NCBI RefSeq assembly: GCF_035083965.1
Contig: NC_089731.1
Location: 1,974,001 to 2,038,000, forward strand
DNA: 64,000 bases
Direction of reading: 5' to 3'
DNA from: Branchiostoma lanceolatum
Taxonomy: Eukaryota > Chordata > Leptocardii > Amphioxiformes > Branchiostomatidae
The translations under genes were made by a program, and so were the position numbers. Every line of letters begins with the position of its first letter. Positions within the stretch are counted from its first letter, which is position 1. Positions 11,593 through 40,993 of this stretch are shown in pieces. The notes under the pieces are model-generated. The model was not told the DNA's origin, made no database searches, and worked only from the letters and a program-made list of their open reading frames with translations.

Positions 11593-12764
11593 TCACTGCG
11601 GAATGCCACACTCTTCCATGAACTTCCTGTGCGACTCTTCCCAGTATTTTGATGCCAGCAGTCTGTCTTTCAGCCGTTTTGCGGCCTCGAACTCCGCAGG
11701 GCCGCCCTTCAGGACCTTGATGATGCGCTTCGCCAGTCTTTCTGCCACCACGTCGTCGCTTCCGTCCATGTCTACGATTGGGCGGTCGAAATCCGGGCCT
11801 TTGCTTTCCAGGAACTCTGCTAGTCCTGAGTTGCTGGACACGAGGACCGGAACGCCTGCAGCGATGGCCTCGAGACCGACCAGTCCGAACGGCTCTGCGC
11901 GTGACGGCATCAGGACCAGGTGAGCTTCTTGGAAATCTCTGCTCAGCTGGTGCCGTGTGCCGTACTTCAGAGGTGTGAAGTGGCATGTGCCCTTCGCAAT
12001 GATGGTTTGGATGATTTCCTTACTTTCAGCGCTGACGCCGCGGATTCGCAACCTTGCCTTTGGGAATCTGTCCAGAACCTTGCCCATGGCCTTTACCAAT
12101 AGATCGTAGCCTTTCAACTTCTCGACGCCCCTGACCCTGCCGACTGTCAGCACCGTTTTGGTCTCTGCTTCGACATAAGTCACATTCATTTGACTGAAGA
12201 TGTCAGAAGGCTTCGGCAGAAACATATGGTGCGGCTTGGAGAGTCTGATCTGGGTTTTGTAGTAATCATGCATTGTTGGCCCAACGGAGAACACCACATC
12301 GGCCTCTTCCATGTCTTCGCGGATAGCTTCCATCTTGTCTCCAATGCTCATCACCTTGTCATCGCTCTTGTGGTGCTCAGTGTCTTCCGGCATGACGTGA
12401 TTGTAGAGGATGAACTTGGCGGACGGAAGACGTTCTTTCTTGATATTTCTAGCAGCTGTGCTAGTGACATCAGCATGGCCAACGATGACGCCTACATTCA
12501 ATGGAAGGTGTGGATAGCGGCTTTTGTGATCGTTGGTGAGCCAGTCTAGCTTTGGTGAACTTTCTTCACAGCCTGAAGTTTTAGGTTCAAGCAAGCGAAT
12601 GCCATTTCTCTGTGCTTCTAGCTTTTCCTCCTCCGAAGCGTTTAACACAGTGCAGAGAACATTTGCTCCTTCAGTAAGAAGATCCATCAGCTGACCGTTG
12701 ATGGTGGAAATGCCGCCCTTGGAAGTCCCGAATTCGTCATTGACCAGCAGCACAACAGGTTTGT
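11593..12764 (-). other. GT-B (GT4-like) glycosyltransferase module of gene A
   Basis: A single terminal exon starting in phase 1. The N-terminal part has VVLLVNDEFGTSKGG, matching the glycine-rich loop of GT-B enzymes. The C-terminal part has EPFGLVGLEAIAAGVPV, the E-x7-E nucleotide-sugar signature of glycosyltransferase group 1. No signal or membrane segment is present, so in gene A the enzyme would be cytosolic. Sugar donor and acceptor cannot be told from sequence. Confidence 0.85.
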
Positions 12765-15700
12765 CTTGTAATAGGTCGACTGGATAACAACAACAACAAA
12801 ACCGTAAGTTAAGACAACAACGCTAATCACAGCCTTTTCTCATGAAACGCATGATTTTATGCGATAATATCCGGCTGTTATGGTGACATGGTATCAGAAT
12901 GTGCGGCTCTCAATAAGTGCAATTAACTTTTATAGTTGTTCACTTTGATATTCTTCTGATCATCGAACTAACTGTGTCCTTCACCTAAAGCGATATTGAG
13001 AGTAGTCTGATTTTTTTTCCACAAGGCGGGTAAAAACTGTTGGCAGCCCGAAGGGCTAAATTGTACCGCTTTGTGAGAGTTTAGCAGTATTTAGCGTTTC
13101 ATCCATATCATGGTCATTCCCTTACCATCAAGACTTTCGTAGTGGTTCTCAGCATAGTGGCCCAGCAACAAAGGACGTGCAGCCCTCGGCGGAGCCCGTG
13201 ATTGGGGATGTAGGACTGTTACGTAATTGTCCGCTTCTACACTGGACACGATGGTGACGTCACGACCCAACATGTCCGCCATGGCCTGTAGGACGACATG
13301 GTCTCCCCACGTCTCGTCACGTGACATGGTGTCCAGGTACTCCTCCCAGCTTTGGTTTGGAATGAAGGCACCAAGATGGTCGCCACGAGCCTGAAACAAT
13401 ATGGACGGAGAAATTGTTCATATATGTACATCACGGGAATATCGCCCTCATCAGTGTAACAGAAACTTAACAGAAGTACAATTTAGACTTGTAACGTTAT
13501 TACGTCAAAGAGAACCACGAACAAAGTAAAAAGAAATATACTGCCCCCCAGTAAACCAGGCAGGCCAAAGTTGGTTGAAGTGTCATTGTCTAAGCCCAAA
13601 GACCATCAGAGAATTGCAAATTATTATATTTGTACAACATGTAGTTAATATCTAGAACCATATTTTTTACTTACGTTCAATGGGTTTCTTCTCAAATGGC
13701 CGACTGCCTGCTGACGCAGCTGTAGATGACTGACGTGTCTCCCCTCGGTGCGGAGAACTTGGTCGGACACGGCGTGAAACATGCAGTTTCCGTCTCCTGG
13801 TACCTCAGCCCGGAACGTCAGACCCAACTCAGACACGTGAGACGCTAGTCTGCTGTAGTTGTCCTCGTACGCGTTGTCTTTTACTGTCAGTTCTGTTAGT
13901 AGCCACATTAACATGTCAAACTCATCTAAAAATGGAAGGAGAGTATTGGGTTATATTGTCTGACAATGCCGGTGTAGAATCTGCCACATTGTCTACACTT
14001 ATTTCTGTATATGAGGAAAATGAACAAAATTATGTTCTCACCCTTGGACTGAGGCCTGTCATTTGGCTTTGCATGCTGGTGTGTCTGTTCTGTAAGCAAA
14101 ATATTATCGAAAGTTAGCCAACGAATCACTTTATTCCGTTTAACATAAGTGGACTGAAAAGGGAAGAAATAAATAGGATGTACACGTATATCGTCTGTAA
14201 AAAAAGATTTTTTATAAAGATTTCGTTATGTTATCCAAAGTAAAATACTGCCTTCTGCTTTGATTGCAATGGGCACGATTTGTCCACGTACCTCCTGTCA
14301 CCCCTGAAACTCCAGCACCAAGATTTAAGGAAGCATGGGTTCCCCTTAAACGCTGGCTCCTTCCTGTAAAAGAAAAAGATAGAGTTTAGTAGCAAGAAAG
14401 AAACAGGCCCTCTGAAGCGATATAAAGTTTAAGAGGATCTTTATGATATTCACGCTAGTCTATGAGATGGATTAAACAGGTTATGTGTCGGGATAAAGAC
14501 GAGCAACAGGTCTGGGACATAAGTCTGAAATGAATACTTTATATTTCCATACTAATTAGACTGCATGGATGGCATCCTCTGCAAAATTGATGCGAGCTCG
14601 ACAAAAAAAGTTAAGAAAAAAAGTTGCTTTCATTATAAAATCCAGGTAGTTACTAATAGGAAGCTTTCAAATCACTGAACTCACGGAACATGGTATACCA
14701 GAAAAGATATCATTTGCCTTTGCTCTTTCACATTTTCTTAGAAAACTTCTATACGCTTTACTTACTTGATGATTTTTATAGAATAGGAAAAGATACATTG
14801 TATGGCATCATTGTGTCTTTTTTCCTATGTATGCTTTGGATGCAAATTACGACATATATCTTATCGCTTTACAGCTTCTTAGTGCAATTTACAATATTGT
14901 CGCATGTTTTCTCTTGAAATGGTCAAAACTTCATGTGGGCACGCATGTCATCCACATCATCGAGTCGGCGTGGCCTAAGTTTGGGTTATTGTAACAAAAA
15001 CCTTATCGACCAAACAACGGATGAATTCTTTGATATTCGGGGCTGTTTATGACTGCTTTAGTAGTGCTGACGTACAGTTGACTGTAGTTCATAAAGTATC
15101 CATGTGAAGATGAATATGCAACATACCAGACATCCTGCTCGGTCTGTAGACAAGGTCTGCTGAAGTTGATGCTGTGTGCATGACCCTGGGACACCTGACG
15201 TCACGGCCGTCATCTGCAGTCCGGTCCCTCAGGTCGAACTGGTGCGGGTTGTCCAGTCCTGCCTTGATGCAGTGCGCACAGGTGACGTGGAGGGAGTACA
15301 GCACACCTGGCCACTCTTGCAGCAGCTGGACCAGCACCTCCAGCAGTGGGCGGACCACGCCCCACATCTCATCTGCCTGTGCAAGCCTGCCTCTGGTGGC
15401 CATGGTGATGAAAGTGTCGTCTGCAGCAGGCTTAGAACTCACCAGTACGGGATAGTCTTGTCTGTAGGCCATGGCTCCGTCTTTCCAGTCTACCCTGTCC
15501 TTGACAAGTGAATGGATCCCAACGCTGAACCTCTGAAACAGTCCCCGGGGACAGAATCCTCTGACGTTACACATCAGCTGTAGCTGTTCCTTATCTTTTG
15601 GTACCTCTGCAGACCACGCACGATTCAACTTCGGGGGCATTTGTTCACACAAGAACCAGGGGATTCTGTACCAACAAGTTTGTTTCGAAGGGTCTGTTTT

Positions 15701-18700
15701 CCCTTCCACTTGTATCTCGAAACAGAGCCCGAAATGCTGCATTAGAGCAGTAACAGTGTCAGGGGTGATGTCGGATGGCAACAAACATGTCATGACGTCC
15801 TTCCGGATCAGTCCGCGTTCGCCAAGGTCCCGTTCAAAATTATCCAGCTGTTGGCCAGTATAATTAGCTTTCTGAAGTCTGGGTGTCGAGAAAAGCGTTT
15901 TGGTGTCGTGATGAAACAGGTCTTTAAAGATTTTTACTAGGACGGAGGGATCATGGAAGACGAAATCCTTTAGTTCCGGTATGTCCGGGTACCTGAGGAT
16001 GGTGCCCACCTGCTGCAGGTAAGACAAGACTGGCTCCAGTCTTTCTAGTGGGATTTCTGCATGCTGTCCGATGCGTTCACATTCAGCTGATGTAAGCCAA
16101 TATCGTACCGGCTGTTTTATTCCCCAACCTGAAGACGATTCTCTGTCCTCGGTTAAAATAGTTTCGTCAGAGCTGTCTTTTTCATCAGACGTTTCAGTCG
16201 AAATTTGAAGCAACTTGTCAAACAATACCCAGGTCCTAGGCAAGACTCTTCTTAATGTTGGAAACAGATTTGTGTATTTTACTGTTTCCAACAGACGATT
16301 CTTCAGGTGGACCCAAGATGGAGGTCTAGATTGCAGAATCTTACGAACTGTAAACTTGGGTTTCACAGACACACAAAGCACGTCGCCAACAATACGCAAC
16401 CTTTGCTTCAACAGGCGATTTGTATGTATAATATGTTGGGCTATGCTTTCCATTGACTTGGAGTGACCTCTCTCGTGGGTAGCCTGTATACCCGTCAGTC
16501 TTGTGATGTGTTGCTTTTGTTGTTTTTCCCACATTTCCATGTGCCGTTTGCTCCTCCTTTGAATGTCCATTTTCTTGAGTATTGCGTCATTACGTCCACA
16601 ACGATCCTTCTTATTACCAACCAAAGAAACCACCGCTCCCGGCACGCGGGCATTCAGTGTGTCCAGCCAGAACCCCACGGCTTCTGTGTAACTCTGCTCA
16701 TTGCAGCTGTATGTCTGAAGATTCACCACTAACAGATAAAAGGCATTCGGAGTCAGAAAGAACTGATGAGTGAGATGGTACACGTCATGGCCGCCAAAGT
16801 CGTACACTTCAAACGTGATGTTGTCATCAGGTGCCCACTGAGTTATCTCTACACAATGTGTGCGGTCCGTTTTTTTTGTCAGAGTCGATTTACGACAGCG
16901 AAGCGTCCGTACCAGGCTTGTTTTCCCCGCAAATTTCTCTCCTAATACTACAACTTTCAAATGGGCGCTTATGTTTTCCTCTGAGCGTTCAAGTTCCTCA
17001 AAGTATTGTCTTATGGCAGCAATTCCCTGTCTAGAAACCTCGGCTGGTGGTTTTATTAGTGGATTTCCTATGACGCCTAATCGAGATAGACTATTGAGCA
17101 GTCCCAATTCTGCGGGTAAAATCTGCAGTAGGTTAAAGTTCAGGTTCAACAATTCTAATTGTGTAAGTCTCCCCACTGCAGGTGGGAGTGTGAGTAACTG
17201 GCAACGCGAAAGATCCAAGTGTTTGATACCAGTGAGCTGTCCAACTTCCGAGGGTAACGTCTGTAGTGAGTTAGAGCTCAGGTCCAGCCATTCTAACTGT
17301 TTCAAGCTGAGCACTTCAGGTGGGAGTGTATTCAGCCGTCTATTGGACAGATCCAAGTGTTTGATGTCAGTGAGCTTACCAGGTCCTGCTGATAATATCT
17401 TTTGTGGGTTAGATCGCAAGTCAATGTATTCCAACTGGGTCAGCTTTAGCACTTCAAGTGGCAAAGTGCGCAGCCAGCAGTGGGACAGATCCAAGCGTTT
17501 GATATTACTGAGTTGTCCAAACGCCCTGGGTAACGTCTGTAGTACGTTGAAGCACAGGTCCAGCCATTTTAACTTTGTTAGTTTTCCTATTTCAGGTGGG
17601 AGTGTGTGCAGCTGGCAGTGGGACAGATCCAAGTGTTTGGCGTTGATGAGCTGTCCAACTTCCGCGGGTAACGTCTGTAGTGGGTTATAGCTCAGGCCCA
17701 ACCATTCTAACTGTGTCAGTCTCCCCACTTCAGGTGGGAGTGTGTGCAGCTGGCAGTCGGACAGATCCAAGTGTTTGACGCTAATGAGCTGTCCAACTTC
17801 CTCGGGTAACGTTTGTAGTGGGTTATAGCTCAGGTCCAGCCATTCTAACTGTGTCAGTCTCCCCACTTCAGGTGGGAGTGTGCGTAGCTTACAATGTGAC
17901 AGATCCAAGTTTTTGACGTTAATGAGCTGTCCAATTTCCGCGGGTAACGTTTGTAGTGGGTTATAGCTCAAATCCAGCCATTCTAACTGTGTCAATCTCC
18001 ATACTTCAGGTGGGAGTGTGCGTAGTTTACAATGTGACAGATCCAAGTTTTTGACGTTAATGAGCTGTCCAATTTCCGCGGGTAACGTTTGTAGCGGGTT
18101 AGACCTTAGGTTCAGCCATTCTAATTGTGTCAGTCTCCCCACTTCAGGTGGGAGTGTGTGCAGCCGGCAATGGGACAGATCCAAGTGTTTAATGTCAATG
18201 AGCTGTCCAACTTCCTCGGGTAACGTTTGTAGTGGGTTAGAGCTCAGGTCCAGCCATTTTATATGTGTCAGTTTCAAAACTACCGGAGGAACTGTAGCCA
18301 TGGTTGTGTCCTTCAGGTTCATTACCCGGATGTTGGTGAGTGCGGACAGATGGATTCCGCTGTTGCCGCTGAGGTCCAATTCCTCCAGCTGGGGAAGTTT
18401 TAGTACTGCCGGGGGAACGGTGGTCAGGTGACAGTTACACAGTTTCAATACTTTAATGTTCTCCAGTCTGCACAACTCATCTGGTATGGAGATTTGATTA
18501 TTGAAACGCAGACTTAAATCATGGATATGTGACAGTTTCAGCACTACAGGTGGCAGCGTGTCCAGGTTGCAGCCATCCAAGTGCAGGACCGTGAGGTTCA
18601 CAAGACTGGACATCTCATCCGGCAGGTTCATGTTCCTGTTTTTACTGAGAATCAGCGTTTCTAACTGTGGAAGGTTTATCACGACAGCGGGAACTGTGTC

Positions 18701-18940
18701 AAGATTGCAGTTATTTAAACACAATAACTTCAGGTTGGTCAGTTTGGTCAGCTCATTGGAGAAATTGACGTTCTGGTTGTTTGCCAAATCCAAGGCCTCC
18801 AGTTCATTTAATTCAAAAAGTTCATTGGGCAGCTTTGTCACATCTCTGAAAGATAAGTCTAGTGTCGAGAGAGTTTTTCCCCCCATTATATCCCATTCTC
18901 TTGGCTTCACCTTGTCTTTAAAGCGCGACGGCATAGCCAT
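11593..18940 (-). CDS. ROCO gene A: LRR-ROC-COR-OTU-glycosyltransferase
   Basis: Putative intracellular receptor of about 1873 residues. Exons: 18940-15127, 14363-14292, 14089-14042, 13925-13675, 13390-13126, 12764-11593; lengths and phases give one open frame. Residues ~30-640 are about 23-residue LRRs. ROC follows with P-loop GEKFAGKTS near 665, switch DFGGHD and G4 motif NKKD near 778. A COR domain ends near 1240. Two short linker exons lead to an OTU domain (~1312-1483) and a GT4-type glycosyltransferase (~1484-1873). The start ATG is chosen because a splice acceptor lies 19 nt upstream (18960-18962), the paralogues start at the same place, and the spliced leader has an in-frame TAA. Nearest known relatives by architecture are MFHAS1/LRRK-type ROCO proteins; the tail is unlike them. 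Substrate and ligand are unknown. Confidence 0.85.
13126..13925 (-). other. OTU cysteine protease (deubiquitinase-like) module of gene A
   Basis: Two exons (251 + 265 nt) form a phase 1-1 cassette. The first has the OTU Asp/Cys motif GDGNCMFHAV (Asp ~1356, Cys ~1359). The second has WGDHVVLQAMADML and ends with the catalytic-His motif HYAENHYESL. All catalytic residues of the OTU family are visible, so activity on ubiquitin or a ubiquitin-like modifier is plausible. Confidence 0.85.
15127..18940 (-). other. Gene A LRR-ROC-COR exon
   Basis: A single 3.8-kb exon carries all LRRs, the ROC GTPase and the COR dimerisation region, ending at a GTATGT donor in phase 1. Its LRRs include a nearly identical 138-bp (two-repeat) duplication with a shared phrase at 17881 and 18019, a sign of recent unequal exchange. 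The G1 and G4 motifs look competent for nucleotide binding. Confidence 0.88.
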
Positions 18941-18958
18941 GATGTTATTTCCAGGATT

Positions 18959-21110: not shown

Positions 21111-21159
21111 TTTAGCACCGAAAACGTTACAACGTGATCGTAATCTCGTATGATAACTA

Positions 21160-24614: not shown

Positions 24615-24872
24615 CTGGAAACCTGCTCTTCAGCCCATCCACAACTCTCATTAGCTCCAGTTCCCTCAGAGCTTCCATCAGAACATCTATGGTGGCGGCA
24701 TCTCCTTCACGTTTCTGCCACTCCTCCAACACGTCCCGGCAACGAGACTTGTTGTCCCCGTTCCTGTCTTCAATGTTGGTGACGTCTGGCCGGCTGAATC
24801 CCAGCTGGTAAGCGACGTCCTTCCACTCTGCCGTTACATTTTCCTTGATGTAATGGACGTACCTACTGACAT
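24615..24872 (-). other. Death domain exon of gene B
   Basis: A 258-nt phase 1-1 exon encoding the six-helix death-fold pattern: WKDVAYQLGFSRPDVTNIE, later VLEEWQKREGDAATIDVL and MEALREL. These match the conserved W..LA..LG and L..W....G positions of death domains in UNC5, PIDD and FADD. It would mediate homotypic assembly. Confidence 0.88.
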
Positions 24873-26144
24873 CTGCAATCAATTAAGAATAGAGTTTTAG
24901 CTGATCAACGATCTGTATATCTAACATAACGTGCATGAAATGTATCTAGGTAAAGAAGTTTGGATGATGAATGCATATTTGCATTTGATACTATTTTAGA
25001 TACTCGCGATATAAAGTCACTAATACAGGAAAATATCTAGCTTTCAATCAGATCACAATCTCCTTGCTGTCAGAAATCTATAAAGATACAGAAATACAAC
25101 AGGTCAGTCGTGTTCTGCCCACCTGAACCGCCACTTTTCTTCTTTGCCAGATGTTTTGTCTGCGACGGTTCTGTTGGCATAGAAGAACAAGATGGTGTTA
25201 ACACTTCTTCATTTCTGGGTAATTGATGAAGAGTAGAGAAGTCAATAGAGCGGGATAAGGTACTTCTGTCTCATCTTTGCAACCCTATGTTGGTTCAAAT
25301 GGGGTTGACAGGGGTCAGTACCCAATTGGCGTTTATCAAGTGTGTCATTTGTTTCACTACTGTTAAACTCATTCGCAGATCGTTGGCGTAAATGTGGAAT
25401 AAAATGTAGCGTATGATATCATATATGTGGCAGACAAGCTAACATTCATGTGCGCTATAGTTTGGCGATTTTTCTTAAAAGTCCACTTACCTCCTGACGG
25501 CCCGGCAACGGCAGAACCCATTGAACTTGTGCTTTCTTCATCAGATTTAAACTTCTTTGCTGGCCGCTTTTCAGCAACATCTATTTTCTGGGATCTTTTG
25601 AGAGGCTGGTCACCTAGTGTAAATGTGTATATTTAGTTAGTTAGTTGGGGCCTCAGCTGTGGAATTCAAATCAGAGATCTTCAGCAGACCACTATATACT
25701 AATGGAAATTTCTCTGTAAGATAGATTACAATGATATTTAAAGTGATACACTTGCTTACTATGAGGCTTTAAAATTATTGCTACTGATATCTTTTGCCAT
25801 AAAGTTCAATGTGCTGTTCATTTACATGTATGTTCCGGTAATATGATACTAGTAGTTCTTTTGGCGCATTTGAGGTCGTCTTGACAAAAAATTCTATGCA
25901 TTGTTACAACCCACCTGATTTTCCCTTCTTTCCCTGTGGTGCCATTGCCTGCATTGGCCTAGATGAACTGCTAGACATCCCTGTAATTCAATAAGGGCAT
26001 TTTTAGCATATGCTACCTCAAAGGTCTATCATAATTGTTATCCACATGGAGCAAAGGTGATTCGGATATCTAAACAAGAATGTGTTTGTTTATCTATATG
26101 ACACTTGAAGATAGGTCGTCTTATTCATGATACTAGTATTTTAC

Positions 26145-26653
26145 CTTGTGAATTGGCATAGGCTAACACAGTCACGTCGTTGATCTTCGATCCCGTCTCC
26201 GGTCTGTGTCCCTACATCCCCAGTCTCTCGTAACTGACCCGTCCTCGGTAGGCAGGCTTGTCAGGTACGCCATCTTTTTTCTTCACGAGCAAACTGTACC
26301 TGTTTCTGTCAGCAGGTGGATAATCAAAGATTATTCCATCCTCTAGGCAAGCCAGGTCTTCCGGATCTACCCGTAGGTCGGATTCCTCCCTGAAAGTAGC
26401 TTTGATTCTCTCCCTGCTAGACATTTCAATCCGTTGCTTGACTTGATAATCAGCACGGACGAAGCCGCTGTCGAAAAAGTCCTTGGCGTCGTCTAATTTG
26501 TGGACGCAGAGCAGATTAACGTCCCATTCCGGAAAATGTACCTTGTTGGGGGAGACAATGAGGTATACCTTGTCCTCGCAGTAACCATTCCAGAGTTATT
26601 CCCACAGCTTGACAACGTTCCTGCAGGCAGCATGAAGTTTCGCCACAACAAAT
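26145..26653 (-). other. UPA-like exon of gene B carrying stops
   Basis: Homologous to the gene C exon 36266-35779. The segment GYCEDKVYLIVSP aligns with RDYIKDKAYVIVTP in gene C, and both continue with an H-K-x-D/Y core. The gene B copy has a one-residue length change next to its TAA and a TAG near its 3' end. Confidence 0.7.
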
Positions 26654-27683
26654 CTGAAAGTAGAAAAAGAAACAAAATGAATCCTTGAATATGCTATGAA
26701 ATGCAATTTTAGGCGCAAGTTGTATTGGACACGTCCGCAAGTTGAAAGACATTACCCCTGAAAGTTGTTCGTCTGGAAGACCACATGGCCATCCTCGTCT
26801 TTGGTGCCTGTCTGGAATACAGTCCACCTATCCGGCCTGCTGTAGTGAAGAACCACCGTCGATTCTGCTGTTGTTTTTTCCTCCTGGTCGCGTTCTGACT
26901 GTGTCCAGACCCAGGGCAGCCTGACGGTGACCGGCCGGAGGAACCGCTGTGGGAAGTCCTGCTCCACAGTCAGCACGGCGGACATGGTCGTTAAGTTGGT
27001 CCGGACGTCATCGGTAACTGGTACAGCTTCAACCTGTGTGTATTTGAAACAAGCCATGCGAATGACATCGAGAAGGCAAACAGAAACGAACGACACAGCG
27101 TATACCAGCAAGAATACAATGTTACCTCAACAGAGATGAAACGTGACTCATCAACACAGCCTTCAGGAAACCCCAGCGTCGCACCGCTGCGTTGAACGGT
27201 GAAGCCCTCTGGTCCTACTTCAAACGTGGGGATGATAGCCGACCCTCTCAAAGACTGTTGTTCTCCTGGAAAGTCAGATTTGACTTCATTGAAAACGAAG
27301 TAATTTTTTTTTTTTTTTGTAGACATGTGTGTCTTGTCTAAAATATATTGAATAACCCTTGAAACCTGCCACAACAATATAGTATGATAATTAAGATGGA
27401 TGTTTAAGAACAAATCACCTTGATACTGACTTTATTTTACTTCCTTTCTTCAACCAAAACTAGAATCACCGAAATTTGGTCACAAGCTGACGTGCACTGA
27501 CGTTAGGGATGTGTGACGTCAGGAGTGGGTCAAAGGTGGCCGGAAGTCAATATCAACCGACGCTAAACCGAGACGACGGCAGATATGGTCTTCTGTCCAC
27601 TTTTGTCAAATACCTGAGGACATTTCGGTGAGTCAAATTTCATTAGATTTCGTGTTGAAAAAAAAAATACAATTTTATCTCAC

Positions 27684-30669
27684 CTTGATGCTGACTCTGC
27701 GGAATGGATTCTGGCAACACCAGGCGATACAGCAAGCCAGGCCACTCCAGAAGGAGCTTAAGAAGTTTATCCTTTAGAGGACCGATGACATTCCAGCAAA
27801 GATGTGTTGCCAGTGCCATTTGGACTGGGATGGTGAGCTTGATCACAATCTTAACATACTCGTCTTTGGTCTCACGGTAAACGGTAATGGGAAGTTTCTC
27901 CCTAACGGCCACGACGATGTCTTTCCAGTCCTGTCTCGACTTGATGAGTTTGTTTACAACAACACTCAATCGCTCAAACAGTCCCCGTGGGCAGAAATGT
28001 GTGATCTCACACGTCACTGTGAACTCCGTCTCTTCCTGCTGTTTGATATCCTGATTAATGACCTCTGTTCTTTCTTCCTGTATATACCATGGGATGCAGT
28101 ATCCAATTGGTGTTGAAGTCTCTCCGTCCAGTTCATCAGACCGTTCCGTGTAGCACAAGCCGAAATGTTCCATCAGGTTAGTGATTACATCCATGTTTCC
28201 GACCGGTGTGGCGTGTGGTCCCAACAGGGCGATAACGACTTCTCTAGGCAGAAAGCCTCGGCTGGACAGGGTTTCCCGGATGTTTGTTAGTTCGGTCTTT
28301 GAGAAGCCTTTGTCTTTGAAACGAGGGTTCCCGATAGTAAAAACCTCTTCTAGATTGTGATGAAATATTTCCTTAATAACATCTATCAAGCCTGATGGAT
28401 CATAAAATACCAGATCCTTGAGTTCCGGTATGTCCGTGTACCTGAGGACGGTTCCCACCTGCTGCAGGTAAGACAGGACTGGCTCCAGTCTGTCCGCCAT
28501 GAGACCTGCCAGCTGTCCTTGCTGCAGACACTCTTCCCGCGTCAGCCATTTAGTCTTGTGACTTTGCAATCGGGCTCGTAGTGGGTTATTATGATAAGTC
28601 GATCTTGCAGACTGATATCGTCCAGTCCCATTGCCTCGCAAGTCACGCAGCTGCTGTTCCAAGTCCACCCATGTCCGCGGTAGGACCCTCCGAAGTACTG
28701 GGAAAAGTGCTGTGTTATTTGCTGTTTCTAATATGTGACTTCTAAGTGTGTCCAACCCAGATGTTGGTTCTGCCGAACTGATGCTGCACACACCTGTAAG
28801 TCTCAGCGGGCGCGTCAGGAGCTGCCGGGTACGTTCTAACTGCTGTTTTACTTCTCCCTGATCGGTCGATCCTGTAGCCACCTTAGCATTTTCCAACTTC
28901 TTTAATTGCTGTTGTATGTTACGTTTCCACATGCTATGTTGTTGTGTGAATCTTTTTTGGATGTCCTTGGTTTTCTCCTGTATTTCTATGTCACTGCACA
29001 TGTCCGTCTTGCTACACACTAATGTAACCACCGCCCCCGGCACGCGGGCATTCAGAGTGTCCAGCCAAAACCCCACGGCTTCAGTGTAACTCTGTTCCGT
29101 GCAGTTGTAAGTTTGGAGATTCACTGTCAATAAATTCAAAGCATCTTGTGTCAAGAAGAACTGATGAGTGAGATGGTACACATCATGGCCGCCAAAGTCG
29201 TACACTTCGAACGTGATGTTGTCATCAGGTGCCCACTGAGTTATCTCTACACAGTGTGTGCGGTCCTCGTATCGTGTCAGGGTGGACTCGCCACTCTGAA
29301 GTGTTTGTATCAGGCTTGTTTTCCCCGCCATTTTCTCACCCAAGACGACAACTTTCAGACGGGCGCTTACCTTTTCTTCTGAGCGTTCAAGTTCTTCAAA
29401 GTATTGCCTGATGGCTTTGATTCCCTGATAACAAACTTCAATTGGTGGTTTTATAAGTGGATTTCCACTGACGCTAATGTCATTGATATTGATGCTACTG
29501 AGATGTCCAACTTCGGCAGGTAACGTCTGTAGCATATTAGAGCGCAGGTTCAGCCATTCTAAATGTGCCAGTCTCCCCAATTCAGGAGAAAGTGTTTGTA
29601 GATTGCAGTTGGACAGATCCAAGTGTTTGATATTAGTGAGATGTCCAACTTCGGCAGGTAACGTCTGTAGCATATTAGAGCGCAGGTTCAGCCATTCTAA
29701 ATGTGCCAGTCTCCCCAATTCAGGAGAAAGTGTTTGTAGATTGCAGTTGGACAGATCCAAGTGTTTGATATTAGTGAGATGTCCAACTTCGGCAGATAAC
29801 GTCTGTAGCGGGTTAGAACGCAGGTCCAGCCATTCTAACTGTGCCAGTCTCCCCAATTCAGGAGAAAGTGTTTGTAGCTTGCAGTTGGACAGATCCAAGT
29901 GTTTGATATTGGTGAGATGTCCAACTTCGGCGGGTAACATCTGTAGCGGGTTAGAACGCAGGTCCAGCCATTCTAACTGTGCCAGTCTCCACACTTTTGG
30001 GGGGATCCTGTGCATCCCACACCAGGATAGATCTAAGAATTTGACGTTAGTAAGGTGCCCAATTTCCGCGGGTAGCGTCTGTAGTGGGTTACAGCGCAGG
30101 ATCAATTGTTCTATCTGTGTCAGTCTCCCTACTTCAGGTGGGAGTGTATGTAGCCTACACCAGGTCAGATCCAAGTGTTTGACGTTAATGAGCTGTCCAA
30201 CTTCCGCGGGTAACGTCTGTAGTGGGTTAGAGCGCAGGTCCAGCCATTTCAACTGTGTCAGTTTCCACACTATTGGAGGAACCGTGACCATGCCTGCCCC
30301 CCGTAGTTTCAGTGCCCAGATGTTGGTGAGTCCCGACATCTCATCTGGCAGCTCGATTATTTTATTCCAGCTGAGGTCAAGTTCCTCTAGCTGGGAAAGT
30401 TTTAGAACTGCATGTGGAACCGAGTCGAGGTCACAATCACATAGTCTCAATATTTTCAGATTTGTAAGTTTTGTCAGCTTCACAGAAAGATCGATGCCCA
30501 TATTTTTGGTTAAATCCAACGCCTCCAATTCTTCTAATTCAAATACTTCATTTGGCAGCTGCCTCAGATATTTGTTAGAAAGGTCCAGTGTCAAGAGGGA
30601 TACTTTTCTCTCTAACATATCCCACTCTTGAAGTTTCAACTTGTCTCTAAAGCTTGATCCAGCAGCCAT
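27684..30669 (-). other. Gene B LRR-ROC-COR exon
   Basis: About 995 residues, shorter than in A and C because it has fewer LRRs. The region near the ROC end has two adjacent copies of a 138-bp unit, 29501-29638 and 29639-29776, which read identically here. A third, slightly different copy starts at 29777. The exon ends in phase 1 at a GTGAGA donor, as in A and C. Confidence 0.88.
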
Positions 30670-33199: not shown

Positions 33200-33480
33200 A
33201 TGAGACTGAGGTTTTCAGTGCAAAATGTTTAATCACAGTAATGCAAAATGTATGTTTAACGTAACATGTATAACATGTATAATGCATAACATGTATAACA
33301 TGTAAAAACTCAGCAGAAAGGCAAACAGAAACTGCAGGCTCCCAACGCAGCATTGCAAGATTGTTCTGTACACCGCTGTGTACAATCTCCTGAGCGTTTC
33401 GTCTTGATTCAAATCCCAGTATGCAATTTACAGTCCCTTCGACCTGTCCAAAAAAGGCCAAGTATGTTGCCAGGTGATGT
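33200..33480 (-). repeat. 3' flank of gene C, paralogous to gene A 3' flank
   Basis: Shares with 11101-11400 the same order of words: aatcacagtaatgcaaaatg, runs of ACATGTATAACATG, aactgcaggctc and a chopped tgtacaccg. It lies just beyond the gene C stop codon and is probably 3' UTR. Confidence 0.7.
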
Positions 33481-33600
33481 GGTATAGTCTAGAATGTGCT
33501 GCGAAATTGGACCATTTTAGGAAGATTTCATACTTGGAATGATCGATCTGACATCACGAAATTTTGATACTCATGGAGTTCTACAGTATCAAGAACATTG

Positions 33601-34808
33601 TCACTGCAGCATGTCGCATTCTTCCAGGAACTTCCTGTGCGACTCTTCCCAGTATTTTGACTCCATCAGTTTCTGTTTGAGTTGTTTGGCAGCCTTAAAC
33701 TCCTTGCTTCCATTCTCCAGTATATCAATGATGCGGTCGGCCAGTCTTGCCCCGTCTTCATTGTCGTTGCCTTTGATTTTCACAATCGGACGGTCAAAGT
33801 CGACGTCATCTTGAGCCTTCAGGAACTTCGCAAGGCCGGAGTTCTGTGAAACGACAGTCGGCACACCTGCAGCAATAGCCTCCAGACCGACCAGTCCGAA
33901 CGGTTCTGCGCGTGACGGCATCAGGACGACATGAGCCTCTTTCATGTCTCTGCTCAGTTGTTGGTGTGTGCCGTGTTTCAGGGGAGTGAAGTGGAATTTA
34001 CCCTTCTCTACGTTGGCTTGGATGATTTCCTTACTTTCCGGGAAGTCTTCGGCACTCACACCGCGGACTCGCCACCTTGCCTTTGGGAATCTGTCTATGA
34101 CCATACTCATGGCCTTCGCGGCAAGATCGTAGCCCTTCAGCCTCTCAGCACCCTTAACTCTACCTATGGACAGCACTATTTTGGTTTCTGTCTCGACATA
34201 GGTCAGATTCATCTGGCTGAAGATGTCGGAAGGCTTAGGAAGGAACTCGTAATGCGGTTTTGAACCTTTGATCTGGTTCTTGTAGTAGTCATACAGGTTA
34301 GGCCCTACCGAAAATATGACATCCGCGCATTCCATGTCTGTCCGTATGGCGTCGCTTTTCTCTCCGATGCCCAATTCTCTACTCTCGCTCTTGTAGTGCT
34401 CGGTGTCTTCTGGGATGACGTGGTTGAAGAGTATCAACTTTGCACCAGGATATCGTTGCTCCTTGATGTTTCTTGCTGCACTGCTGGTGATACTAGCATG
34501 GCCAATGATGTAAGCTATATCTGATGAAAGGTTCGGATATCGAGCTAGGTGGTCGAAAGTGAGCCAGTCAAGAGTCGGCTGCCTTTTGTCAGCCATTAAG
34601 CTTGTTGGAAATACCAATTCCACTCCGTCTGCCCTTGCTTCATTGACTTCGGAGGCATTTAAAACAGTACAGAGAACCTTAGCTCCCGTTGAACTTAGTA
34701 GTTTGGCCAGCTGGCGATTTATAGTGGAGATTCCACCCTTGGAAGTACCATATTCGTCATTAACCAGTAGCACAACAGGCGTGCCAGAATATGACGTGTG
34801 TTGAAAGC
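33601..34808 (-). other. GT-B (GT4-like) glycosyltransferase module of gene C
   Basis: Terminal phase-1 exon homologous to the gene A module. It has VVLLVNDEYGTSKGG near its start and EPFGLVGLEAIAAGVPT with the E-x7-E signature near its end. The many conserved blocks between A and C imply both remain under selection. Confidence 0.85.
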
Positions 34809-37800
34809 CTAAGAAGAAAAAAGATGGAAAGTGTTTAATTGGTCACTCTTCTTTGCTATCAAGAGTTGTAGCATGGTTGCCTAATCTTTCTAATTTTGTG
34901 ACATAATGTCAATCTGCTTATTTCTTCTTCTTATGTATCACCATATACTTAGAATGACAGGTGCTAATGATAAAACCATATATAGAGTCATAAGATACCC
35001 AAGGAAGTCTTATTGGAGGACAATTACAGAAAAATCTCCTTAAAGGAATTGTCCAGTAACTTTACTAAGCAGTTATCATAGTGAGCCCCCTTACGATTAT
35101 TCTGCTATAGAGTCACCTATGCTACATGCTACATGATTTTCCCAGTAGTTTGGACAGATTACGTTTGTAAAATGCTAATGCGTGGATGGTAGGGTGGACT
35201 TATGTACGGTATGAGATACGCACCGTCTTCTTTTCTGATTTGTGGTCCGAAGAAGTCGGATATGGGGCCTGCAAAGTAGAGCTGGGACACAACTGCAACT
35301 ATCGCGGCAATCATCGCCATGGCAAGGAACGTTGGGAAAACGGGCACGTGTCGTCGTGTCCTGGGTGGAGGTGGGTCGTTTGATTCTGGTCTGGCTTCAT
35401 GGTGTTGATGTGATGGAGTGTGCTCACTCAAACCTGGAAATATAGAAACAGTAAACCAATGACTGAACGTGAAAGTTGGGACCTAGTTTGGCAACTTTTG
35501 CACATTTCTACCAAATACGGAAATGACAGAACAGTTTTAATCAAGATCACGTTTGCAATATATTTTCAATACCTGTGCTCTCGTGTCTTTCGACTAAGTC
35601 TGGAGGATCATTTTCTTGCACGCGGGTGTCTGTTGTCGCCGCTAAAAACAAAAGACAAGACGGCAGGAGTGTCAACTTATTGTGAAGTCTAAGGAATGTA
35701 TATTCATAAAAATCGGCGGATGTGAAGAATGAGCTCATTTCAACGTATGAGTGTCTTTCTAAGTACGCAGCATCTTACCGTGTTGCCGCTGTCGCAGTTG
35801 CACAAAGGCTTCAAACTGTTGGCCCCCTCCAGTCCCGGTCGGATTCGATGTTCCTTTTATTTCAAACTCGACTTTTCCGTCATAAACATCCTTCATCAGC
35901 ACAGATTCCTTCACCTTTAGCCTAACCGTGCGGGTTGTCGGTGGAGAGAGAACAATAGCTTCGCCTTCTGGAAGGTCCCGAGGGTGAGCAGCAACGTCTT
36001 CGTGCTGAGAGAAAGTAGCTTCGACCCTCTGATCCCGTTTTAGGGCTACGCGCCGCTTGGTCTGAGAGTCGAATCTTACGTCAGGCGACACGAACAAGTC
36101 AGGCAGGTTGTCGTATTTGTGCATACAGATGAGGTGCAAGAGTCTTTCGGTCACCACAGGCGTGACGATGACGTAGGCTTTGTCCTTGATATAATCTCTC
36201 CAGGTCCGCTGTGCCCAGCTAACTATGTCTTTGCTGCGGTTCCGCAAAACTTCCAGCACCCAATAGCTGCAGTAGAATCATTCAAGTGTAGTTAGCATAA
36301 TTAAACATTCGTATTGTTGTATTAATAGATCACATTACTACAAGCAAACGACAGGACTACAATGGGGGTAAATATCAGTGAAAACGTTTTCAACAATGCG
36401 TGAACATAATCCCAGCGTATGAGGTACAAGCCTGTTAACATACCCTTGAAAGTGATCAATTTGAAACATGACGCCGCCATCTTCCTCGTGAGTGTGTGTC
36501 TTGAAGAAGGTCCATCCGTCATCAAGACCGTAGTGTAGAACCACCGTTGTTGTTTCCTTTCCCACCGCGGGCTGAGTCCAGACCCAGGGCAGCCTGACGG
36601 TGACCGGCCGGAGGAACCGCTGTGGGAAGTCCTGCTCCACAGTCAGAACGGCGGACATGGCCGTGAAGTTGGTCCGGACGTCGTCGGTAACAGGCACGGC
36701 TTCAACCTGAGCAGGTATTTGAAACAATCATATAAAAGCGGTGCTACAATGACACTCTCAGCAGAGGATGAAAATACAGAAGACAACGCTACAGGGGATA
36801 TGAAGTCAATCTACAACTTACCTCGACAGAGATGAAACGCGTTTCTCTAACAGAGCCTTCCGGAAACTCGAGTGTAACGCCGCTGTGTTGAACAGTGCAG
36901 CCTTCTAGCCCTACCTCAAACGTGGGGATGGTGGCGGAAATTGTCAAGCCCTGCTGTGTTTCTGAAGTGATATCTAGCCAAATAAATAACAGTTTAGTTT
37001 TGAATTTGCATCAATAAATACAAAGTAAGTATTATAGGATTTTATTGGTGCAAAAGTTTCACGAGGACATCTTTCACTTCACATGAATCGGAATGCTGAA
37101 TAATAAAAAGAGCTACCTTTCTTTTCACCATGCTGAGTGAACGTAGAGTGCACTAGGTGGTAGAGCAGACCAGGCCACTCCTTCAGAAGAGTGACGAGCT
37201 TGTCTTTCAAGGAATTAATTGCCTCCTGAACTACCCATGCTCCCTTGATGAACCCGGCTGGAACAGTGAGCTTCACCACGATATTAACACGCTCGTGTTT
37301 CGTCTCGCGGTAGACGATAACGGGGAGACTCTCTAGATCGCTAACGGCCACAATGACGTCTTTCCAGTCCTGTCGGGACTTGATGAGTTTGTTGACCACA
37401 ACACTCAATCGCTCAAACAGTCCCCGTGGGCAGAACCCCGCTATCTCACACGTCACAGTGAATCCTTTCTTTTGCCTTTTTCGGAAATCCCGTTTCACAG
37501 TCTTTGGTCTTTCTTCCCGTATATACCATGGAATGCAGTATCCAGTTGGTGTTGAAGTCTCTCCGTCCTGTTCGTCAGACCGTTCCGTGTAGCACAAGCC
37601 GAAATGTTCCATGAGGTTCGTGATCACATCCACGTTTCCCACCGGTGTGGCGTGTGGTCCCAACAGGGCGACAACGACTTTTCTCGGTAGAAGTCCTCGG
37701 CTGGACAGGTTTTTCCGAATCTTTCTCAGTTTTGTATTCGAGAAGCCTTTGAGTCGTGGATTTCTGTTGGTAAAAACCTTCACCAGGTCGTGATGATACA

Positions 37801-40800
37801 GTCCTTTGATGACGTCTATCAAGCCTGATGGATCATGGAAGACAAAATCCTCAAGTTCCGGTATGTCAGTGTACCTGAGAATGGTTCCCACCTGCTGCAG
37901 GTAAGACAAAACTGGCTCCAGTCTGTCCGCTGTGAGACCTGCCAGCTGTCCTTGCTGAAGACATTCATCCCATGTGAGCCAGACAGGTTTGACCAACTCG
38001 AGATCGCTGTCCGAACTATCTGAATCGTCACTATAGTACCAACTATGAGTTGAAACATCGTTATCATAAACAGTTTGAAGTTTTGGTTCAACTTCTGTTG
38101 GTTCGTCTAGATCATGGCTGTCATTAAAAGTGCTCTGTGATCGCGGCTCGCGGTCGGACTCACTTCCCTCACAAGATGCAGATGATCCGCGTTCGCTTCT
38201 GTCTGTGGCATGCTCCTGTGATTGGTCATCTTTTGGTACATCTTGATCATCACCTGGTGATTGATGATCTTTTGTCCGCAATGTTGACTCCTTTTCGTCA
38301 CGTCTCCCATTTTCCCTGTCACGCAAGTAGCGCAGCCGCTGTTCAAACTTCACCCATGCTTGTGGAAGAATTCTTCGAAGGGTTGGGAACGATTCTGTGT
38401 TATTTGCTAACTCTACTATATGGCTCCTTAGTGTGTCCAACCCAGATGTTGGTTCTGCCGAACTGACGCAGCACACACCTGTTAGCCGCAGCGGGCGCGT
38501 CAGGAGCTGCCGGGTACGTTCTAACTGCTGTCTCACTTCCAACTGATCGGTCCCTACTTTGGATGCAATAACATTTCCCAACTTCTTTATTCGCTGTTGT
38601 ATGTTGTGTTGCCATGTGCCATGTTGCTGTGTGGACCTTTTTTGTATGTCGCTAATCTTATTTTCTATCTCTGCATTGCTGCACATGTCCGTCTTGCTAC
38701 TCACTATTGTAACCACCGCCCCCGGAACCCGGGCATTCAGTGTGTCCAGCCAAAACCCTACGGCTTCTGTGTAACTCTGTTCTGTGCAGTTGTAAGTTTG
38801 GAGATTCACTGTCAATAAATTCAGAGCGTCGGGTGTTAAGAAGAATTGATGAGTGAGATGGTACACGTCATGACCGCCAAAGTCGTACACCTCAAACGTG
38901 ATGCTGTCATCAGGTGCCCAATGAGATATCTCTACACAATGTGTGCGGTCCTCTTCTTCTGTCAGGGTGGACACGCCACTACCTAGAGTCCGCACTAAGC
39001 TTGTTTTTCCCGCCATTTTCTCTCCTAACACTATAACTTTTAAACGAGTGGATACGTTTTGATCTGAGCGTTCAAGCTCATCAAAGTACTGCCTAATAGC
39101 AGTAATACCCCGCCTGCAAACTTCTGTAGGTGGTTTTATAAGTGGGTTTCCACTGACGTTTAGATGATACAGATTTGTGAGCTGATTAAACTTTGCCGGA
39201 AGAGCTACGATCTTATTATCTCTTGCATCTAATTTGCCAAGGCTCCACAGTGAACTAATGGTGTCAGGTAGGTGAGTCAACTTGTTTCCGGCCACGTTAA
39301 GTTTTTTAAGTCTAACCATGCCAGACATGTCCCGGGGAAGACTTGTCAGCTGGCAGTCACTCAGGTCTACGTGTTTAATTTTAGTGAGCTGTCCTACTTT
39401 GTCGGGTAACGTCTGTAGTGGGTTAGAGCTCAGGTACAGCCATGCTAATTGTGTCAGTCTACCCAACTCAGGTGGGAGTGTGTGCAGCTTGCAATGAGAC
39501 AGATCCAAGTGTTTGACGTTAGTGAGCTGTCCAACTTCCGCGGGTATCGTCTGTAGTGGGTTAGACCGTAGATTCAGCCACTTTACCTGTGTCAGTCGCC
39601 ACACTTCAGGTGGAAGTGTGCGCAGCTTGCAGTTGGACAGATCCAAGTGTTTGACGTTAGCCAGCTCCCCAACTTCCGCAGGTAACGCCTGTAGTGGGTT
39701 ATCGCTCAGGTCCAGCCATTCTAACTGTGTCAGTCGCCCCACTTCAGGTGGGAGTGTGTGCAGCTTGCAGTTGGACAGATCCAAGTGTTTAACATTAGTG
39801 AGCTGGCCAACTTCCGCGGGTAACGTCTGTAGTGGGTTAGAGCTCAGGTCCAGCCATTCTAACTGTGTCAGTCTCCCCACTTCAGGTGGGAGTGTGTGCA
39901 GCTTGCAGTTGGACAGATCCAAGTGTTTAACATTAGTGAGCTGTCCAACTTCCGCGGGTAACGTCTGTAGCGGGTTATTGCGCAGGTACAGCCGTTCTAA
40001 CTGTGTCAGTCTCCCCACTTCAGGTGGTAGTGTGCGCAGCTGGCAGTGGGACAGATCCAAGTGTTTGACGTTAGTGAGCTGTCCAACCTCTATTGGTAAC
40101 GTCTTTAGTTGATTTAAGTGTAGGTTCAGCCATTGTAACTGTGTCAATCTCCACACTACCGGAGGAACTGTGTGCATGCCTGTTGCCCCCAGTTTCAGTA
40201 CCCGGATGTTGGTGAGTCCGGCCAGCTCATCCGGCAGGTGGATCAGGTGGTTCTCTGTAAGGTGGATCCCGCTGTTCCCCCTGAGGTCCAGTTCCTCCAG
40301 CTGCGGGAGTTTCAGTACTGCTGGTGGAACGGTGGTCAGGTTACATTCACGTAGTGTCAACACTTTAATGTTCTTCAGCCTGCAGAACTCATCTGGCAGG
40401 GAGATCTGCGAATTGTTACTCAGATCCAGCTCCTGTAGGTTTAGTAATTTCAGCACTACAGGCGGAAGTGTGTTCAGGCCACAGCTGTCCAGATCTAGGT
40501 AGGCGAGGTTCACGAGACTGGACATCTCATCCGGCAGTTTGATGTTCTTGTTGTTGAAGAGGCGCAACCATTTCAACTGAGAAAGTTTCATCACGACCGC
40601 GGGAACTGACGGGAGTTCGCAGCTCTCCAAGTCCATGTAGGTGAGGTTCATTAGACTGGACATCCCATCTGGCAGAATGATGTTCCTGTTGTTACTGAGG
40701 ATCAGTGTCTCTAACTGTAGAAGTTTCATTACCACAGCGGGGACTGTGTCAAGATTACATTCAAGTAAACTCAACGCCTTCAGATTGGTCAGTCTGATAA

Positions 40801-40993
40801 GCTTCTCGGATAGTCCGATGTTCTTGTTCCTGTCTAACCTCAAAGCCTCCAACTCATTCAACTCAAAAAGTTCATCGGGTAATTGACTCAGGTGTTGGTC
40901 AGACAAGTCAAGTGTCAAGAAGGTGTTTATTTTCTCCATTATATTCCACTCTTCAAGTTTCATGTTTTTTCTAAGTCTTGGTGATGCAGCCAT
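33601..40993 (-). CDS. ROCO gene C: LRR-ROC-COR-ZU5-UPA-like-TM-glycosyltransferase
   Basis: About 2088 residues. Exons: 40993-37117, 36973-36822, 36706-36444, 36266-35779, 35641-35573, 35433-35224, 34808-33601; total 6267 nt in one frame, no internal stop. LRRs cover ~30-640. ROC has P-loop GEKMAGKTS near 659, DFGGHD and SKTD at G4. A long Ser/Asp/Glu-rich insert sits between ROC and COR (38000-38330). ZU5 is at ~1293-1430 and the UPA-like region at ~1431-1593. One hydrophobic segment (~1649-1672) follows RTRRH. A GT4-like glycosyltransferase ends the protein. The start is chosen as for the paralogues: acceptor 19 nt upstream and an in-frame TGA in the predicted leader. Basic residues before the TM suggest N-terminus in the cytosol and the enzyme on the other side; this is inference. 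Confidence 0.85.
35224..35433 (-). other. Transmembrane exon of gene C
   Basis: A 210-nt phase 1-1 exon. It encodes a His/Pro-rich stretch (NDPPPPRTRRHVP) and then about 23 hydrophobic residues including FLAMAMIAAIVAVVSQLYF. It joins the UPA-like module to the glycosyltransferase and has no counterpart in A or B. Confidence 0.8.
37117..40993 (-). other. Gene C LRR-ROC-COR exon
   Basis: A single exon with two LRR styles. N-terminal repeats are diverged, and a central array (about 39360-40100) contains near-identical two-repeat units of 138 bp, as in A and B. The exon ends in phase 1 before GTAGCT. The conserved COR end FCPRGLFERLSVVVNKL is shared with gene B and, in looser form, gene A. Confidence 0.88.

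What the first reader, a model, noticed from the sequence alone, without database searches (positions are those of the whole stretch)
11593..40993. Modular ROCO cluster with interchangeable phase-1 effector cassettes
Three tandem paralogues share one front-end exon ending in phase 1. Every following module is a 1-1 cassette: OTU 516 nt, ZU5+UPA about 903-927 nt, TM 210 nt, death domain 258 nt, linkers of 48-123 nt, and a phase-1 terminal GT. This allows tail swapping without frame loss, like a toolkit for building receptor-effector combinations. It is the strongest candidate for an undescribed innate-immune-like system in this window.
Basis: partly seen in the sequence, partly recalled or inferred. 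Interest (0 to 1): 0.92.

Follow-up and report, generated by a model that had tools for sequence, protein, structure and literature searches.

The report
Lancelet LRR-GTPase receptors with swapped tails
Three neighbouring lancelet genes share one sensor-and-switch front part but carry different enzyme or death-domain tails, and comparison with their relatives shows that at least the last tail part has been re-dealt among genes again and again, probably to vary an immune-type response whose function nobody has yet tested.

Summary
The observation largely holds. On the minus strand lie three tandem genes (A, B, C), each with one LRR-ROC-COR exon ending in phase 1, then modules whose outer boundaries are all phase 1 (14 of 14). 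Corrections: ZU5-UPA and OTU are multi-exon with inner phase-0/2 introns; B has no glycosyltransferase (it ends after the death domain) and its UPA exon carries two in-frame stops; the 'GT' is GT4-conflict (PF20706), a known conflict-system effector.

GT4 lineage lies on the front-end tree as if at random (12 changes, shuffled mean 12.4). Front ends 92% identical carry GT4s 41-47% identical; front ends 44% identical carry GT4s 89% identical. The first module (ZU5-UPA, OTU, caspase) mostly follows the front end, so interchange is partial. GT4 also sits on NLR, TPR and other front ends, where it mostly follows the front-end class.

Phase-1 exon shuffling is a published lancelet feature, and bacterial LRR-ROC-COR proteins with swapped effectors, GT4 included, are published. 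This looks like a new animal variant of a known kind. Immune function is inferred only.

The parts
37117..40993 (-). Gene A front exon from ATG: LRR array, ROC GTPase, COR; ends phase 1 (donor at 37117 as P0044 implies, or 37129)
   Evidence: identical to P0044 (B. lanceolatum)
36822..36973 (-). Gene A ZU5 exon 1 (phase 1-0)
   Evidence: fold ZU5
36444..36706 (-). Gene A ZU5 exon 2 (phase 0-2)
35779..36266 (-). Gene A UPA exon, subfamily a (phase 2-1)
35573..35641 (-). Gene A linker exon, 69 nt (1-1)
35224..35433 (-). Gene A transmembrane exon, 210 nt (1-1); hydropathy peak 2.36
   Evidence: 10 of 14 type II relatives tested have a stretch above 2 behind ZU5-UPA
33601..34808 (-). Gene A terminal GT4-conflict exon (enters phase 1), lineage alpha, E-x7-E present
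   Evidence: (PF20706 E=1.8e-78)
27684..30669 (-). Gene B front exon from ATG: LRR-ROC-COR, ends phase 1
27126..27283 (-). Gene B ZU5 exon 1 (1-0; acceptor tentative)
26756..27033 (-). Gene B ZU5 exon 2 (0-2)
26145..26653 (-). Gene B UPA exon, subfamily b (2-1), with in-frame TAA at 26596-26598 and TAG at 26212-26214
25915..25980 (-). Gene B linker 1, 66 nt (1-1)
25491..25613 (-). Gene B linker 2, 123 nt (1-1)
25123..25170 (-). Gene B linker 3, 48 nt (1-1)
24615..24872 (-). Gene B death-domain exon, 258 nt (1-1)
   Evidence: (PF00531 E=8.7e-15); 78% identical to P0004
24098..24138 (-). Gene B terminal exon after the death domain (13 residues and stop)
15127..18940 (-). Gene C front exon from ATG: LRR-ROC-COR, ends phase 1
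14292..14363 (-). Gene C linker 1, 72 nt (1-1)
14042..14089 (-). Gene C linker 2, 48 nt (1-1)
13675..13925 (-). Gene C OTU exon 1 (1-0), holds DGNC
   Evidence: (PF02338 E=1.5e-15)
13126..13390 (-). Gene C OTU exon 2 (0-1), holds NHY
11593..12779 (-). Gene C terminal GT4-conflict exon (enters phase 1), lineage alpha, E-x7-E present
   Evidence: (PF20706 E=5e-76)

Best explanation
A, B and C belong to a lancelet family of LRR-ROC-COR proteins (relatives of vertebrate MFHAS1) that seems to lie in one chromosomal cluster per species. The front end is one exon; behind it stand effector or adaptor modules. Recombination in the introns at module borders has repeatedly re-paired front ends with tails. 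Within the family the terminal GT4 glycosyltransferase is dealt almost freely; the first module (ZU5-UPA, OTU or caspase) moves less often and stays tied to front-end type. Phase-1 outer borders let unrelated modules join in frame. Shown: anatomy, phases in this window, tree discordance of predicted proteins, catalytic motifs. Inferred: the recombination route, and function: the LRRs sense a cytosolic cue, ROC-COR switches or dimerises on GTP, and the tail acts: GT4 glycosylates a target, OTU removes ubiquitin or a like modifier, caspase or death domain triggers cell death, ZU5-UPA gates or scaffolds and, with a TM segment, anchors some members in a membrane. Swapping tails would then vary the response while the sensor-switch part is kept, as proposed for bacterial LRR-ROC-COR conflict proteins.
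For: Gene models and phases. 53 family rows with tails GT4, OTU+GT4, caspase, death, ZU5-UPA+GT4 and mixtures. ROC-COR 92% vs GT4 41-47% identical in three pairs; ROC-COR 44% vs GT4 89% in P0002/P0041; AU p=3.5e-31. GT4 lineage on the front-end tree: 12 changes, shuffled mean 12.4, 251 of 500 as low; 24 rows (22 with NCBI model-style names, chosen by me, plus A and C): 8 against 7.96, 346 of 500 as low. COR-GT4 rho 0.05 over 666 pairs; halves of GT4 0.80. P0014/P0035 (B. lanceolatum, two assemblies): ROC-COR 82%, OTU 94%, GT4 43%. Common breakpoint; junction residue G/A/V/D/E in 28 of 34, against 4-10 of 34 at the six following and 0-17 of 34 at the six preceding positions. Contig lengths put 28 of 28 family rows of the five sets with contigs of about 20 Mb on one contig each. 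Motifs: GT4 E-x7-E in 37 of 37 family rows and 139 of 142 overall; OTU DGNC 13 of 14, NHY 14 of 14; caspase QAC[RQG]G 13 of 13.
Against: All relatives are predicted proteins; chimeric gene models in a tandem array could mimic swapping, and two (P0016, P0022) look fused. Types I and II are still somewhat clustered on the GT4 tree (7 changes, shuffled mean 11.4, 1-4 of 500 as low). Over all front-end classes GT4 mostly follows its class (37 changes against 86.9 shuffled), so free dealing holds only inside the LRR-ROC-COR family. The ROC-COR internal control is only moderate (rho 0.37; 0.19 within type II), so the front-end tree carries noise or its own recombination; within type II COR-GT4 rho is 0.24. 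B. belcheri rows lie on several smaller scaffolds and four B. floridae rows have no contig data, so the single cluster is not shown for them. Intron phases of relatives were not read. No expression, infection or activity data. B's tail is interrupted. Linker likeness to other family members did not beat shuffles.
Confidence: 0.7

Rival explanations
1. Plain whole-gene duplication and divergence: front ends and tails descend together, and the different tails reflect old losses and gains only.
For: The first module follows the front-end type (5 changes against 18.8 shuffled); A and P0039 are related along their whole length.
Against: GT4 discordance: AU p=3.5e-31, and three pairs at p=1.5e-06 or less (pairs picked after seeing the trees); random placing of GT4 lineages.
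Confidence: 0.06
2. Annotation artefact: gene finders chained front ends to GT4 exons of neighbouring genes in the cluster, so the discordance lies in the models, not in the genes.
For: All relatives are predicted; some look fused or partial (P0016, P0022, P0017, P0051).
Against: In this window A and C each have exactly one GT4 right behind their own modules, and no further GT4 of either lineage is found (tblastn). Rows with NCBI model-style names alone give the same randomness. OTU and GT4 stand 4-7 residues apart in 9 of 10 rows that have both.
Confidence: 0.14
3. Each locus carries several alternative last exons (both GT4 lineages), and splicing, not recombination, picks one.
For: Phase-1 borders would permit it; B could in principle skip its whole ZU5-UPA module in frame (inference).
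Against: Only two GT4 exons lie in the window, one each in A and C, both of lineage alpha.
Confidence: 0.07
4. The family works outside immunity (for example a GTPase-controlled glycosylation or ubiquitin pathway), and tail exchange is near-neutral turnover of a tandem array. This can be true together with the re-pairing itself, so its odds are not exclusive of the best explanation's evolutionary part.
For: No functional data; exon shuffling is high genome-wide in lancelets (PMC4284660).
Against: GT4-conflict, death, caspase and OTU tails and LRR sensors are usual in conflict proteins; catalytic motifs are kept; GT4 also sits on NLR, TIR, CARD and PYD proteins in lancelets.
Confidence: 0.2

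Closest known systems
Bacterial AP-GTPase conflict proteins: LRR-ROC-COR with variable C-terminal effectors (PMC8195603, section 15 read in full)
   Same: Same order: LRR, AP-GTPase (ROC), COR, then a variable effector, GT4 and caspase among them; several paralogues with different effectors in one genome.
   Different: Animal genes with introns; effectors sit on exon modules with phase-1 borders; stacked modules (ZU5-UPA+TM+GT4, OTU+GT4). The passages I read name GT4 in cephalochordates beside TRADD-N and LRR; its Figure 6A and source data, which may show more, are not held. I did not verify the bacterial proteins myself (the one scan gave one weak locus).
Lancelet 1-1 phase exon shuffling (PMC4284660, passages)
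   Same: Excess of 1-1 exons and of shuffled domain exons in the same genus.
   Different: The passages seen are genome-wide; this case is one family with a fixed GTPase front end, measured discordance and named effector types.
Amphioxus LRRs-caspase hybrid genes (PMC2575513, section 8 and passages)
   Same: LRR sensor joined directly to a caspase with a QACXG motif; possibly members of this family (inference).
   Different: Words beginning with roc, glyco or otu do not occur in its main text.
MFHAS1 (MASL1), vertebrate ROCO
   Same: LRR-ROC-COR homology: vertebrate MFHAS1 rows hit with E about 1e-60 over 94-100% of the query.
   Different: 28-29% identity; the Pfam column of those rows lists no effector tail.
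Coral GT4 expansion (PMC8195603, section 15)
   Same: GT4 as a promiscuous conflict domain in an animal, over 500 paralogues in Acropora digitifera.
   Different: Different phylum; ROC-COR partners in animals are not mentioned in the passages read.
Brown-algal ROCO exon shuffling (PMC11378527, abstract and outline)
   Same: ROCO genes diversified by exon shuffling, candidate immune receptors.
   Different: There the LRR (sensor) exons shuffle; here the tail does.

Membership tests
ROCO (LRR-ROC-COR) proteins | ROC GTPase domain | tested here: met
   PF08477 above cut-off (27) in A, B, C: 46.5, 52.6, 57.4 bits
ROCO (LRR-ROC-COR) proteins | COR domain directly after ROC | tested here: inconclusive
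   COR-B above cut-off only in C (43.7 bits); COR-A below cut-off in all three. Homology of C to vertebrate MFHAS1 over 94-100% of the ROC-COR query argues for it
GT4-conflict (PF20706) | Pfam profile match | tested here: met
   264.7 bits (A) and 256.6 bits (C), cut-off 26
GT4-conflict (PF20706) | E-x7-E catalytic motif (motif recalled) | tested here: met
   37 of 37 family rows, A and C among them
GT4-conflict (PF20706) | sugar transfer activity | not testable with these tools
   needs assay
OTU cysteine protease | profile and Cys/His active site (motifs recalled) | tested here: met
   PF02338 58.2 bits, cut-off 23.3; DGNC and NHY in C
ZU5-UPA (ankyrin, UNC5, PIDD, NLRP1 type) | ZU5-UPA fold | tested here: met
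Self-cleaving ZU5/FIIND proteins (PIDD, NLRP1) | HF|S cleavage site (recalled) | tested here: not met
   HFQG, HFQS, RFQS or QFQS in the seven type II rows of alignment A1, NFQG in B: no Ser straight after Phe
NLR (STAND) receptors | NACHT or NB-ARC domain in the front end | tested here: not met
   none among the Pfam matches of A, B, C at E up to 0.1
1-1 shuffled module | phase 1 at both outer borders | tested here: met
   14 of 14 boundaries in this window; relatives only indirectly, 28 of 34 junction residues
Bacterial-type AP-GTPase conflict system | constant LRR-ROC-COR with variable effectors in paralogues | tested here: met
Bacterial-type AP-GTPase conflict system | counter-invader function | not testable with these tools
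   a prediction in the source paper too

The most novel reading that the evidence does not exclude
Lancelets run an effector lottery: one cytosolic LRR-GTPase chassis in a single tandem cluster is re-paired, fast enough to differ between near-identical genes and perhaps between haplotypes of one locus, with glycosyltransferase, deubiquitinase, caspase or death-domain tails through phase-1 introns. The sensor-switch is kept and the weapon is changed: the reverse of the usual immune diversification, in which the sensor varies.
Probability: 0.35. Interest if true: 0.8.

Novelty: new variant of a known kind. Interest (0 to 1): 0.64.

Why it matters
It gives a concrete, countable case of effector-side diversification in an animal receptor family and a direct parallel to bacterial LRR-ROC-COR conflict proteins. 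It makes testable whether lancelets vary the output of an immune-type sensor by exon exchange, and it points to GT4-conflict glycosyltransferases as a widespread, untested effector in lancelet NLR, TPR, ankyrin and ROCO proteins. In the listings of my searches (an open-access library, and several lists were longer than what was shown) I saw no account of animal LRR-ROC-COR proteins with GT4 or OTU tails.

Tried and rejected
PDB sequence search with the single ZU5-UPA sequence found nothing; a profile of ten rows reached ankyrin-3 at 3.5e-4. My first E-x7-E pattern was wrong and gave 0 of 142; corrected. Kinship of B's linker 2 with linkers of other family members looked good by eye but did not beat shuffles in any of five tests, so it is not claimed. 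A bacterial GT4 scan gave 35 pattern stretches and one weak locus. The self-cleavage idea (NLRP1/PIDD) is dropped for lack of Ser after Phe. A lumenal GT4 in TM members was considered; the charges flanking the TM differ between relatives (by eye), so topology is left open. The third homology search added three lancelet rows (P0190-P0192) and two others, not put into the trees.

Rows left out: of the lancelet rows, P0044 (same as winA), P0052, P0074, P0075 and P0076; of the others all but three outgroups (P0054, P0056, P0057). P0016 and P0022 are out of the first-module count, with 11 rows whose first module is GT4, death or none (40 of 53 used). Two of 37 type I rows (P0019, P0033) did not match the junction pattern and are not in the 34 plus winC. 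Of 271 GT4 hits only the best 120 were listed. The front-end classes are rough labels of mine from the Pfam columns; for example four of nine 'ANK-ROCO' rows list no ankyrin domain.
Full report

Phases. All 14 boundaries between front end, modules, linkers and last exon are phase 1. Inside modules they are not: ZU5-UPA has phase-0 and phase-2 introns and OTU a phase-0 intron, so 8 of 16 internal tail exons are 1-1. The published lancelet background is about 28% for non-shuffled exons, 40% for shuffled exons and 51% for shuffled domain exons (PMC4284660, passages), so the case fits a known general bias; 8 of 16 against 0.28 gives P=0.051.

Gene B. Its front end is open over 2986 nt, but the UPA exon has two in-frame stops, 26598-26596 and 26214-26212. 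Its phases are otherwise kept. Either the tail is decaying, or the ZU5-UPA module is skipped as a whole, which phase 1 would allow (inference). P0004 in B. belcheri has that shorter order, LRR-ROC-COR-linker-death, and ends just after the death domain.

Relatives. A search with C's ROC-COR gave 90 proteins, one with C's GT4 271 (120 listed), one with A's ROC-COR 54. I used 53 rows: 50 lancelet database proteins and the three window genes. Their tails: ZU5-UPA+GT4 15, OTU+GT4 10, caspase 10, GT4 alone 9, and nine classes with one row each. In the sets whose contigs are about 20 Mb long, all family rows share one contig length: B. floridae 5 of 5, B. lanceolatum 7 of 7 and 3 of 3 (two assemblies), the two hybrid assemblies 7 of 7 and 6 of 6 (that equal length means the same contig is inference). 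B. belcheri rows lie on several smaller scaffolds, and four B. floridae rows have no contig data.

Discordance. On the ROC-COR tree a type II clade of 16 rows (support 100) always carries ZU5-UPA, while type I mixes OTU, caspase, GT4 and death tails; two type I rows with ZU5-UPA (P0016, P0022) look fused. The 13 tail classes need 22 changes (least possible 12, shuffled mean 33.1, 0 of 200 as low). The first module alone follows the front end: 5 changes over 40 rows, shuffled mean 18.8; OTU against caspase alone 4 changes, shuffled mean 8.1, lowest shuffle 3. GT4 does not follow. It falls into two deep lineages, about 45% identical to each other, and each holds type I and type II genes. AU rejects type II GT4s as one clade (p=3.5e-31; the group was set by front end and first module, though I had seen the GT4 tree) and rejects three pairs picked after seeing the trees (p=1.5e-06, 3.4e-09 and 2e-71). 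These pairs have ROC-COR 92% identical and GT4s 45, 47 and 41% identical; P0002 and P0041 have ROC-COR 44% and GT4 89%. Lineage alpha/beta needs 12 changes on the front-end tree, shuffled mean 12.4, 251 of 500 as low; in 24 rows (22 with NCBI model-style names, plus A and C) 8 changes, shuffled mean 7.96. Against this, types still cluster somewhat on the GT4 tree: 7 changes, shuffled mean 11.4. Distance correlation: COR-GT4 0.05 over 666 pairs (within type I 0.07, within type II 0.24); controls GT4 N-half to C-half 0.80 and ROC to COR 0.37. The weak second control says that the front end is itself noisy or recombining.

Breakpoint. In type I relatives homology of the front end ends at one place, after ...LVYRPxxxS or its like, whatever tail follows. 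The next residue is G, A, V, D or E, as a split G|NN codon would give, in 28 of 34 relatives (winC left out; 2 of 37 type I rows did not match the pattern); the six following positions give 4-10 of 34, the six preceding 0-17 of 34; background 0.30. This supports a shared phase-1 donor but does not replace reading the DNA. UPA comes in two subfamilies that need 4 changes over 15 type II rows behind a conserved ZU5, about as many as shuffled labels (mean 4.4), so exchange may also use the phase-2 intron. Phase 1 is thus not the key to every exchange; it matters where unrelated modules are joined.

Wider use of GT4. Among 142 GT4 domains of the listed lancelet proteins, 16 front-end classes need 37 changes on a FastTree tree (least possible 15, shuffled mean 86.9, 0 of 200 as low): LRR-ROCO, ankyrin-ROCO, ROC-COR-death, NLR, TPR, IRG, NHL, TIR-Ig-LRR and others, with GT4 at the N- or C-terminus (rough classes assigned by me from the Pfam columns). 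So GT4 has changed front-end class many times, but at this wide scale it mostly follows its class. An NLR with CARD, death and GT4 (P0100) and a pyrin-domain protein with GT4 (P0125) were checked by Pfam. The E-x7-E motif is kept in 139 of 142.

How it may work. Shown: domain order, motifs, exchange signal. Inferred: the LRRs sense, ROC-COR switches, the tail acts. GT4 would glycosylate an invader or host molecule (as proposed in PMC8195603), OTU would trim ubiquitin or a like modifier, caspase or death domain would start cell death, and ZU5-UPA would gate or scaffold; self-cleavage as in PIDD or NLRP1 is unlikely because Q, not S, follows the Phe (cleavage rule recalled). Besides A, 10 of 14 type II relatives tested have a hydrophobic stretch (19-residue mean above 2) behind ZU5-UPA, so some receptors may sit in a membrane.

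Known and new. Bacterial LRR-ROC-COR proteins with at least 24 effector types including GT4, and GT4 expansion in corals, are in print (PMC8195603, section 15 read in full; figures not held); so are lancelet 1-1 exon shuffling (PMC4284660, passages) and amphioxus LRRs-caspase genes (PMC2575513, section 8 and passages). Brown-algal ROCO exon shuffling concerns the LRR side (PMC11378527, abstract). A lancelet pangenome paper reports the death domain as the most over-represented domain among dispensable genes (PMC12373286, passages), which would suit haplotype differences in such tails. I saw no account of animal LRR-ROC-COR with exchangeable GT4, OTU or ZU5-UPA tails in the listings. I therefore file it as a new variant of a known kind.

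Noticed in passing
58326-63939 (+): Polinton/Maverick-like pieces: two neighbouring ORFs match type B DNA polymerase (PF03175) and a third a Pox_A32-like packaging ATPase (the name Polinton is my reading). Not joined or followed further.
   Followed up: partly
26145-26653 (-): Gene B UPA exon has two in-frame stops although its splice phases are kept; the whole ZU5-UPA module could be skipped in frame.
   Followed up: partly
LRR arrays in 39347-40176, 29489-30271, 17092-18275 (-): LRR arrays of all three genes hold 138-nt units (two 23-residue repeats) about 80-85% alike, so the sensor side also changes by unit duplication.
   Followed up: no
11064-11258 and 33176-33369: About 195 nt behind the GT4 exons of A and C are 84% identical, more than the GT4 region itself (about 70%): a 3' UTR element, a repeat or a conversion tract.
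   Followed up: no
database rows P0092-P0189: GT4-conflict sits in lancelet proteins with many other front ends (NLR, TPR, ROC-COR-death, IRG, TIR-Ig-LRR, PYD, NHL), in NLR and TPR rows mostly at the N-terminus; some proteins carry two copies.
   Followed up: partly
P0106, P0109, P0117, P0118, P0170, P0183: ROC-COR proteins outside the LRR family (P0170 and P0183 list ankyrin repeats) share the ZU5-UPA+GT4 or OTU+GT4 tail order with the LRR family.
   Followed up: partly
53548-54057, 55730-56152, 48922-49329, 50978-51682 (+): C-type lectin, kringle, GON domain and reverse-transcriptase fragments on the plus strand.
   Followed up: no
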